5,793 bases of DNA from Oscillospiraceae bacterium (GTDB lineage Bacteria; Bacillota_A; Clostridia; Oscillospirales; Oscillospiraceae): NCBI GenBank assembly GCA_017936985.1, contig JAGBEM010000168.1, forward strand, positions 1 to 5,793. Reading direction: 5' to 3'. Below are positions 197 through 1,567 of the stretch, piece by piece (position 1 is the stretch's first letter; each line of letters opens with the position of its first letter). The notes under the pieces were generated by a model. The model was given only the letters and a program-made list of their open reading frames with translations, searched no databases and was not told the DNA's origin. The translations under genes and the position numbers were made by a program.

Positions 197-237
197 AAAA
201 AATACACAGAGCTGTTACGGATGTAACAGCTCTGTGT
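197..237 (-). terminator. Rho-independent terminator of the PfoR-like gene
   Basis: A perfect 15-bp stem (204-218 with 223-237; arm ACACAGAGCTGTTAC) closes on the 4-nt loop GGAT. On the minus strand it is followed by a run of six T (197-202). It begins 8 nt after the stop codon of the PfoR-like gene. In the plus direction it is followed only by GATTTTC, so any bidirectional use would be weaker. Confidence 0.92.
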
Positions 238-245
238 GATTTTCA

Positions 246-1328
246 TTACAGATCCAACTTTAGGTCGTTTTCCTTGATCCAGCCCCATTTGCGCAGAATT
301 AAGCAGAATGCCCAGCTTAAAACAGCCGGCAGGATAAAGCAGATCAGCACCAGACCGATCCAGTCCATGGCGGTAATGGCGGCCTTTGCGCCGCTGGCCA
401 CATCGTTGACCCAGCCGGTATACACGCCGATCTGACCTACCAGACCGCAGGTGCCCATGCCGGAGGACACCGGCGCGCCGTTCATTTCCAGCTTAAACAA
501 GCAGGTGGCCAGAGGGCCGGTGATCATGGATGCCAGAGTAGGGGGGATCCAAATGCGGGGATTTTTCACGATGTTTGGCATTTGCAGCATACTGGTACCT
601 ATGCCCTGGGCCACCAGACCGCCCCAGCGGTTTTCCCGGAAGCTCATAACGGCGAAGCCTACCATCTGGGCGCAGCAGCCGGCTACAGCAGCGCCGCCGG
701 CAAGACCGGTCAGACCCAGTGCGGCGCAGATAGCTGCGGAGGAGATTGGCAGAGTCAGCGCGATACCGATAACGGCAGATACCAAAATTCCCATCCAGAA
801 GGGCTGCAAAATGGTGGCCCATTCTACAAAGTCACCTACAGCGGAGGCTGCCTTACCGATGGGAGCGGCCACCAGAGCGGAAAAACCGATACCAACGAGA
901 ATGGTGACGATGGGCGTTACCAAAATGTCCACCTTAGTCTCCTTTGACACCAGTTTGCCAAATTCGGAAGCCACGATGGCCACGAAATACACAGCCAACG
1001 GGCCGCCGGCACCGCCCATGGCGTTGGCAGCAAAGCCTACCGGGATCAAGGAGAACAGTACCAGTGGCGGACAGTGCAGGGCATAGCCAATAGCGACGGC
1101 AATGCCGACACCGACCATGGCTTTACACAGACCGCCGATGGTGTAGCTGCCGGTAATCACGGCGTTCAGAAAACCAATGCCGAATTGCTGTCCGATGGTG
1201 TCCAGGATCGTGCCTACCAGCAGTGTACAGAAAAGACCCTGAGCCATAGCACCCAGTGCGTCAATGCCGTAGCGCTTGCCGGAAAAGACAATGTCCTTCT
1301 TTTGCAGGAATGCGCGGAGTTTGTTCAT
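246..1328 (-). CDS. PfoR-like / PTS_EIIC_2 family polytopic membrane protein
   Basis: A 360-residue, strongly hydrophobic protein with roughly nine or ten membrane segments, of the family annotated as PTS_EIIC_2 or as 'PfoR, putative toxin regulator' (COG3641). Family-like stretches include a glycine-rich GGAGGP (residues 105-110), the polar loop GKLVSKETKVDILVTP (124-139), and NGAPVSSGMGTCGLVGQIG (283-301) near the C-terminus. It resembles the membrane IIC component of sugar phosphotransferase systems, but no IIA or IIB gene is seen nearby, so substrate and phosphorylation are unknown; PfoR of Clostridium perfringens was linked to toxin expression, which need not apply here. I chose the ATG at 1326-1328, since a GTG four codons earlier (1338-1340) would overlap the only ribosome-binding-like stretch, AAAGAGAG. 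It has its own promoter, a long structured leader and a terminator, so it is monocistronic. Confidence 0.85.
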   Translation of the reverse strand: MNKLRAFLQKKDIVFSGKRYGIDALGAMAQGLFCTLLVGTILDTIGQQFGIGFLNAVITGSYTIGGLCKAMVGVGIAVAIGYALHCPPLVLFSLIPVGFAANAMGGAGGPLAVYFVAIVASEFGKLVSKETKVDILVTPIVTILVGIGFSALVAAPIGKAASAVGDFVEWATILQPFWMGILVSAVIGIALTLPISSAAICAALGLTGLAGGAAVAGCCAQMVGFAVMSFRENRWGGLVAQGIGTSMLQMPNIVKNPRIWIPPTLASMITGPLATCLFKLEMNGAPVSSGMGTCGLVGQIGVYTGWVNDVASGAKAAITAMDWIGLVLICFILPAVLSWAFCLILRKWGWIKENDLKLDL

Positions 1329-1532
1329 TTGTAGTTTCACTCTCTTTCAGTAGAATTGCGTCTGCTGAAAAAGCGTGCGCCAGTGATCAACGCTGGCCCT
1401 AGGCGGCTCGGGGCATCTAAGCGGCATATCCTTTCTTTCCACCGCGGATACTCAGTCACCTTCGGTGCCGACCCAAAGCCGCAGCCTCTGCAGCTTTGGA
1501 ACTTTGCCCGTTCTTCACAGATCGGAAACATT
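1329..1532 (-). ncRNA. Structured 5' leader of the PfoR-like gene, orphan riboswitch candidate
   Basis: The consensus promoter at 1539-1567 implies a transcript start near 1532, leaving about 204 nt of untranslated RNA. Seen in it, 5' to 3' on the minus strand: a 12-bp hairpin with one U-G pair and an AGG loop (1473-1499, arm CCAAAGCTGCAG); a hairpin CACC-GAA-GGTG extended by UCGG/CUGA; a local stem GCCAG/CTGGC (1379-1397); and a 9-bp stem CTTTTTCAG/CTGAAAGAG (1342-1373) that buries the purine-rich ribosome binding region. Long-range alternatives also exist: AAAGCTGC with GCACGCTTT (one bulged C), and GCGGCT with AGCCGC nested inside it, both competing with the local hairpins. Such mutually exclusive folds are typical of riboswitches. 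An AGAGG after the possible P1 recalls the lysine riboswitch, but its other conserved elements were not found. Ligand and class are unknown. Confidence 0.5.
1342..1373 (-). promoter_or_regulatory. Hairpin that could sequester the ribosome binding site of the PfoR-like gene
   Basis: On the minus-strand RNA, CUUUUUCAG (1365-1373) pairs with CUGAAAGAG (1342-1350) over nine positions with one U-G, across a 14-nt loop. The 3' arm contains the AAAGAG part of the only Shine-Dalgarno-like stretch before the ATG at 1328. The 5' arm is also part of the possible long-range helix with AAAGCUGC (near 1490), so the two states exclude each other. The pairing is visible; control of translation is inferred. 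Confidence 0.5.
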
Positions 1533-1538
1533 GAAATG

Positions 1539-1567
1539 ATTATAATGGGAAAGATCCAGATTGTCAA
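1539..1567 (-). promoter_or_regulatory. Consensus sigma-A promoter of the PfoR-like gene
   Basis: Minus-strand -35 TTGACA (1562-1567), exactly 17 nt, and -10 TATAAT (1539-1544): both hexamers match consensus fully. The start is expected near 1532, about 204 nt ahead of the chosen ATG. A promoter this strong in front of a long leader suggests control acts after initiation. Confidence 0.88.

What the first reader, a model, noticed from the sequence alone, without database searches (positions are those of the whole stretch)
1329..1532. About 200-nt structured leader ahead of a PfoR-like gene: possible undescribed riboswitch class
A perfect-consensus promoter is followed by about 204 nt without a credible gene, full of stable hairpins (12-bp stem at 1473-1499) and nested long-range pairings (AAAGCTGC with GCACGCTTT; GCGGCT with AGCCGC) that cannot coexist with the local ones. 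I tried to match it to lysine, TPP, FMN, SAM, cobalamin, glycine, M-box, ydaO, ykkC, ZTP, THF and T-box patterns and found no convincing fit. A ligand for this leader could reveal the substrate of the PfoR/EIIC_2 transporter family.
Basis: partly seen in the sequence, partly recalled or inferred. Interest (0 to 1): 0.72.

Follow-up and report, generated by a model that had tools for sequence, protein, structure and literature searches.

The report
RNA switch before a vitamin-transporter gene
The untranslated start of this bacterial message folds into a conserved shape, unlike any in the RNA catalogue, that looks able to hide or expose the ribosome site of a membrane transporter whose relatives in other bacteria sit with vitamin B3 (niacin) genes, so it may be an undescribed vitamin-related RNA switch.

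Summary
The leader (minus strand, 1532-1329) is a conserved structured RNA. It starts at a perfect-consensus promoter and precedes a PTS_EIIC_2 (PF13303) gene (ATG at 1328). Rfam 15 has no match. Covariance models found it in 13 of 136 genomes of one Oscillospiraceae genus (plus one diverged copy), each time before the same gene, and in no other genus among 400 family-level and 394 order-level sampled genomes. Covariation supports P3, P4, P6, a closing helix P1, and a hairpin P7 that buries the Shine-Dalgarno region. P1 and P7 share one strand and both covary, the signature of a translational switch; in 13 of 14 sequences the state without P1 (P7 allowed) is favoured by about 4-8 kcal/mol. No ligand was tested. 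Context places the transporter in NAD-precursor uptake: in other Clostridia the gene has NiaR-type operators (21 of 80 perfect cores, 0.1 expected), niaR nearby (13 of 80), and pncB-niaR-transporter order (2 of 80). The 14 leader-bearing genomes searched show no NiaR and no NadA (the window's own genome is not held). Best reading: a riboswitch candidate standing where other lineages use NiaR, with an NAD-pathway ligand as first guess. The predicted 'ligand on' polarity is opposite to feedback and unexplained.

The parts
1539..1567 (-). sigma-70/A type promoter, TTGACA (1567-1562), 17 nt, TATAAT (1544-1539); start of transcription about 1532 (inferred)
   Evidence: 12 of 12 matches; TTGAC[AT]-16 to 18-TATAAT stands before the leader in 14 of 14
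1511..1521 (-). 5' strand of P1 (UCUGUGAAGAA), closing helix of the whole domain
   Evidence: pairs with 1372-1361; replaced on both sides in L091-L093/L084, in L094 and in L110
1463..1510 (-). P2 (1510-1506 with 1468-1463, bulged A1466), carrying P3
   Evidence: 95.7% of cells paired, C-G to U-A in L094; 3 of 14 are unpaired at one pair
1470..1502 (-). P3 hairpin; terminal CAGAGGCUG (1490-1482) in 14 of 14 (absent from the diverged L110), arms variable
   Evidence: swap test, 20,000 permutations, p 0.00005; letters
1402..1460 (-). P4 (1460-1449 with 1415-1402) enclosing P5
   Evidence: swap test p 0.00025; 8 of 12 pairs with both-side changes
1421..1445 (-). P5 hairpin (1445-1441 with 1425-1421)
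   Evidence: pairs in every sequence but no covariation by the swap test, p 0.93
1379..1397 (-). P6 hairpin (1397-1393 with 1383-1379); preceded by conserved AGG (1400-1398) at the junction
   Evidence: swap test p 0.00005; letters
1342..1373 (-). P7: hairpin that pairs the Shine-Dalgarno region (about 1347-1340) with 1373-1365; shares 1372-1361 with P1
   Evidence: swap test p 0.0001; energies
246..1328 (-). PTS_EIIC_2 (PF13303) transporter gene, 360 aa, downstream of the leader
   Evidence: E 3.4e-93 (query began at 1334, two codons early)

Best explanation
The leader is a cis-acting RNA switch that sets translation of a transporter for an NAD precursor. SHOWN by computation: a conserved core (P2-P6, a four-way junction closed by P1) and two alternative helices that share one strand, P1 and P7. 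INFERRED: in the resting state P7 buries the ribosome-binding region and translation is low; when the core is stabilised, P1 forms, takes the 5' arm of P7 and frees the ribosome site, so translation rises. INFERRED: the stabiliser is a small molecule, making this a riboswitch. INFERRED from regulation and gene neighbourhood: the transporter belongs to NAD-precursor (niacin) uptake, and the RNA stands where other lineages use the niacin repressor NiaR; the first ligands to test are therefore nicotinate, nicotinamide, NaMN, NMN, NR and NAD. My estimates: structured regulatory RNA 0.97; P1/P7 switch 0.85; small-molecule ligand 0.65; ligand in NAD metabolism, given that, 0.6.
For: R1 finds the leader in 13 of 136 genus genomes (E 1.4e-11 or lower), R2 the same 13 and one diverged copy; the window's and these 13 all stand just upstream of this gene. 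Cognate arms pair better than swapped arms for P1, P3, P4, P6 and P7 (p 0.00005 to 0.00025 on 14; 0.00005 to 0.00135 on 10 representatives). 21 of 36 core pairs show changes on both sides, 0 of 500 shuffles as many (on an alignment fitted to R1). P1 is kept in four different sequence versions and P7 in the same four. The state without P1 is favoured by 3.9-8.4 kcal/mol in 13 of 14. Transporter: perfect TGTCWWGACA core upstream in 21 of 80 loci, 0.1 expected from letter shuffles, fitting the published type I NiaR site TGT-N4-ACA (PMC7713382, passages); NiaR homologue inside 13 of 80 loci; niaR beside the gene in 7 of the 8 genus genomes with both; a pncB-like hit within about 1.5 kb in 8 of 77 transporter genomes; pncB-niaR-transporter order in L077 and L011. 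Leader-bearing genomes searched: NiaR 0 of 14, NadA 0 of 14. No NiaR-type core of 9 or 10 matches in the 14 leaders with their promoters, window included, L110 not included.
Against: No ligand was tested. P1 closing the core predicts 'ligand turns expression on', whereas NiaR represses niacin uptake when niacin is plentiful. In L094 P1 is already the more stable state (by 3.2) and the two helices overlap only in part; in L110 the P1 fold is 7.3 kcal/mol better than the fold without P1, so those two may not be off at rest. L110 also lacks the CAGAGGCUG loop. The permutation values do not correct for kinship. 55 of the 77 transporter genomes of the genus show neither leader nor NiaR, so control of this gene is dispensable and the replacement story is a correlation. 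The leader is narrow and has one gene context, so the ligand cannot be triangulated from several genes. G005 and G007, both with the leader, gave no pncB-like hit.
Confidence: 0.55

Rival explanations
1. It is a riboswitch, but its ligand has nothing to do with NAD (for example a sugar or an ion carried by an EIIC-like protein).
For: The predicted fold leans to EIIC: ChbC and PtsG are among the top matches, weak (E 0.012-0.1, TM 0.37-0.57, no match at E 0.001 or less). The leader may have been recruited for another signal. On-switch polarity does not suit vitamin feedback.
Against: niaR, NiaR-type sites and pncB keep company with this gene family in part of the Clostridia examined.
Confidence: 0.2
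2. A protein, not a small molecule, binds the conserved loop CAGAGGCUG and junction and tips P7 against P1.
For: The terminal loop of P3 is the same in 14 of 14 while its stem drifts, as in many protein sites.
Against: The conserved positions are spread over junction, bulge and loop of a 140-nt core, more than most single-protein sites need (judgement, not tested).
Confidence: 0.15
3. It is a structured but unregulated leader (message stability), or an RNA thermometer built on P7.
For: P7 alone could act as a heat-labile lid; in two diverged members the P1 state is already favoured.
Against: A thermometer does not need P2-P6 nor a P1 that covaries with the 5' arm of P7.
Confidence: 0.08
4. It is a diverged member of a known riboswitch or T-box family missed by Rfam.
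For: Rfam models can miss far relatives.
Against: No gathering-level hit in the leader of the window or of L003, L004, L005, L008, L010, and no shared hit in the leaders of 13 relatives down to E 10; the architecture matches none of the classes that I recall (memory, no call).
Confidence: 0.02

Closest known systems
NAD+-II riboswitch (pnuC motif)
   Same: Narrow RNA class before a transporter of the NAD pathway, acting on the ribosome site; first found in one genus (PMC7749635, abstract and passages).
   Different: There, constructs of 65-85 nt and a possible pseudoknot to the ribosome site, predicted 'OFF'; here a core of about 140 nt, a four-way junction and an SD hairpin released by P1 (predicted 'ON'); another transporter family.
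NAD+-I riboswitch (nadA motif)
   Same: NAD-pathway gene control by RNA.
   Different: Two tandem bulged stem-loops with an ACANCCCC bulge (abstract start of PMC7297122 in a listing). No Rfam match here; ACANCCCC occurs in 2 of 14 leaders, not in the window.
NiaR (YrxA) repressor and its operator
   Same: By the evidence here it controls the same transporter family in other Clostridia; published NiaR targets include niaX, niaY, niaP (PMC7713382 passages).
   Different: A DNA-binding protein acting on transcription; not found in the 14 leader-bearing genomes searched.
NiaY niacin transporter family
   Same: Named in papers as a NiaR-regulated niacin transporter family; in Bacilli and Clostridia (PMC5343564, PMC6593275 passages).
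   Different: Whether PTS_EIIC_2 is NiaY was not tested: the founding paper is not held. If it is, the substrate guess is not new.

Membership tests
riboswitch (general) | conserved structured core in the 5' leader with covariation | tested here: met
riboswitch (general) | expression platform with mutually exclusive states | tested here: met
   P1/P7 share a strand and both covary; prediction only, overlap partial in L094
riboswitch (general) | direct binding of a small ligand | not testable with these tools
   needs in-line probing or ITC
Rfam 15 families (all 4227, so known riboswitches and T-box as far as held there) | score above the family's gathering threshold | tested here: not met
NiaR regulon | TGT-N4-ACA operator before the gene of the window and its leader-bearing kin | tested here: not met
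   best 7-8 of 10 to TGTCWWGACA in 14 of 14
NiaR regulon | operator and niaR with the same gene in other Clostridia | tested here: met
   21 of 80 perfect cores, 13 of 80 loci with a NiaR homologue
PTS_EIIC_2 transporter | PF13303 over its cut-off | tested here: met
   312.7 bits against 28.9
PTS_EIIC_2 transporter | transport of niacin or another NAD precursor | not testable with these tools
   inferred from context only

The most novel reading that the evidence does not exclude
A third RNA class for NAD metabolism, possibly the first that senses nicotinate or its nucleotide: an ON riboswitch that replaced the NiaR repressor before a little-known niacin transporter family (PTS_EIIC_2/PfoR) in NAD-auxotrophic gut bacteria.
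Probability: 0.3. Interest if true: 0.85.

Novelty: new variant of a known kind. Interest (0 to 1): 0.7.

Why it matters
It is a conserved RNA switch candidate with strong covariation and no Rfam entry, and it comes with a short, testable ligand list. It also gives a substrate guess (an NAD precursor) for a transporter family that sources name 'PTS sugar transporter subunit IIC' or 'uncharacterized membrane protein', in a genus where 132 of 136 genomes gave no NadA hit (completeness of the genomes not told). A case where an RNA stands in for a protein repressor before the same gene would show how regulators are swapped in evolution.

Tried and rejected
Rfam at lax thresholds: scattered chance hits in the leaders. 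Model hits dropped: L085 (E 0.11), L095 and L169 (same place in G455, look like a dispersed repeat), L096, L167 (antisense in a recR-like gene), L168 (inside an argH-like gene); no transporter was found beside them. Of 70 transporter loci (L097-L166) whose upstream DNA was taken, 18 could not be oriented by tblastn and were not printed; the model searches of the 136 genomes did cover them. P0, a 5' hairpin competing with P1 and P2, is seen in folds but is weak by eye in L081, L082 and L087; I do not rely on it. Pairing of the extreme ends (GUUUC/GAAAC), noted, fails by eye in L082, L087 and L094 and is dropped. Leader peptide: no shared frame. Phages: no blastn match; viral contigs: one exact pattern only, no match. 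Origin: on a tree of 55 transporter rows (15 with leader, 19 leaderless of the genus, 21 others) the leader needs 5 changes: old with losses, or moved. PF04095 (11 of 136) under-counts pncB: the pncB protein of G004 does not list it, so pncB was read from weak PF01729 hits and confirmed by NCBIfam for proteins of G004, G451 and L077 only. The NiaR profile was built from 12 picked frames, of which L180's is a wrong frame. Some 9-of-10 operator hits are -35 boxes. Rodionov 2008 on NiaR is not held.

Full report
Observation. The minus strand carries a perfect sigma-A type promoter, about 204 nt of leader and a PTS_EIIC_2 gene, 246-1328 (PF13303). The leader folds better than its shuffles, z -2.8. 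Rfam has nothing.

Conservation. The transporter query brought 80 loci (a capped list, more relatives exist). Upstream of the gene in L004, L005, L008 and L010 the same leader stands in long conserved blocks. A covariance model from the window, L004, L008 and L010 (R1) was run over all 136 held genomes of the genus of L008 (probably Faecousia: the genome of L002, a Candidatus Faecousia record, is among them). 15 had a match at E <= 0.1, of which 13 are accepted (E 1.4e-11 to 3.4e-36) and two (L095, L096) dropped. With the window this gives 14 leaders. All 14 lie just before the transporter, and each genome shows one match. A second model (R2) found the same 13 and one diverged copy, L110/L170 in G003, E 0.033, also before the transporter. 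In 400 genomes drawn from the family R1 found only G006 itself, and in 394 of the order R2 found G006 and two hits that I dropped; these wide searches used stricter filters and scored few candidates per genome. 77 of the 136 genus genomes have the transporter at E <= 1e-40, so 14 of 77 have the leader. On a protein tree of 55 rows the leader needs 5 changes.

Structure. Reading the 14 leaders by segment (all 14 fitted) gives: P2 (CGGGC with GC-A-CYG, with variants); P3 with variable arms and CAGAGGCUG at its end in 14 of 14; AA; P4 enclosing P5; AGG; P6; then P7. In alignment A6, which is fitted to R1 and so leans towards its structure, 86.1% of 498 cells pair, 21 of 36 pairs change on both sides (12.8 in shuffles, 0 of 500 as high), and sliding one strand by 1-3 columns drops pairing to 30-45%. 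An alignment-free swap of arms between species gives p 0.00005 for P1, P3 and P6, 0.0001 for P7, 0.00025 for P4, and no signal for P5 (0.93) on 14 sequences; on 10 representatives 0.0004 (P1), 0.00005 (P3), 0.00005 (P6), 0.0003 (P7), 0.00135 (P4) and 0.95 (P5). These are not corrected for kinship.

Switch. P1 pairs the 5' end with the 5' arm of P7, whose other arm holds the ribosome site. Four sequence versions keep both pairings: window type, L091-L093/L084 type, L094 and L110. In L094 the overlap of the two helices is partial. With P1 forbidden (P7 allowed) the ensemble is more stable than with P1 enforced by 3.9-8.4 kcal/mol in 13 of 14; L094 prefers P1 by 3.2 and L110, by lowest-energy folds, by 7.3. 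The simplest logic for the 13 is off at rest, on when the core is stabilised.

Transporter. In part of the other Clostridia the region near the -10 box of this gene holds a palindrome. 21 of 80 upstream regions have a perfect TGTCWWGACA, 10 more have 9 of 10 (some of these are -35 boxes); letter shuffles give 0.1 and 1.6. Papers describe the Firmicute NiaR site as TGT-N4-ACA (PMC7713382, passages) and a predicted Streptococcus site TACAATTGTCTTGACAATTGTA at nadC, whose mutation alone had no effect there (PMC5343564, passages). A NiaR homologue lies in 13 of the 80 loci; the L077 and L011 proteins have HTH_11 plus 3H domains, the NiaR make-up given in PMC5343564. In the genus, 12 of 136 genomes have a 3H-domain protein, 8 of these also the transporter, and in 7 of 8 the two are neighbours. 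A pncB-like hit lies beside the transporter in 8 of 77 genomes; nicotinate phosphoribosyltransferase identity was confirmed for proteins of G004, G451 and L077, and pncB-niaR-transporter is the order in L077 and L011 (pncB cut by the contig end in L011). NadA is in 4 of 136 genomes and in none of the 14 with the leader; a pncB-like hit is in 12 of these 14; PnuC in 1 of 14, G488. The window's own genome is not held, so none of this is tested for it. The predicted fold leans to EIIC but is of modest quality (mean pLDDT 75; best matches ChbC and PtsG, E 0.012 and up).

Against. The polarity is opposite to feedback; no ligand was tested; the class is narrow; 55 of 77 transporter genomes of the genus show neither NiaR nor leader. 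In print I found no niacin or nicotinate riboswitch under five phrases (0 papers), nothing under COG3641 or PTS_EIIC_2, one paper with PF13303 (listing only), and none of six terms in one ncRNA survey (PMC8632094); 'PfoR' mostly returned the enzyme PFOR (listing of 20 of 214). The library holds open-licence papers only.

Verdict. A real, apparently undescribed RNA switch candidate of translational type; riboswitch probable, NAD-pathway ligand a reasoned first guess.

Noticed in passing
L001:5590-5994; by eye also upstream of the gene in L104, L108, L114, L115, L118, L135, L141: A FlK-type thioesterase gene (PF22636, E 1.2e-38, checked in L001 only) sits between pncB and the transporter gene in L001; similar letters precede the gene in the others.
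   Followed up: partly
L016, L019, L020, L047 upstream of the transporter: Hairpins followed by T-runs just after the promoter look like attenuators in yet other leaders of the same gene (by eye).
   Followed up: no
L095:1501-1611 / L169: A dispersed-repeat-like stretch shares GGCACCGAAGGTGACTGAG with the leader; probably chance or a repeat family.
   Followed up: no
window 203-238: Strong two-way terminator-like hairpin between the transporter and a partial gene at 1-138 with a weak BlaI match.
   Followed up: no
L004:1091-1165: S10-Clostridia ribosomal leader (Rfam RF03136), unrelated to the finding.
   Followed up: no
L094:1832-1903: A tRNA gene (Rfam RF00005, E 2e-9) about 200 nt from the leader, on the same strand.
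   Followed up: no
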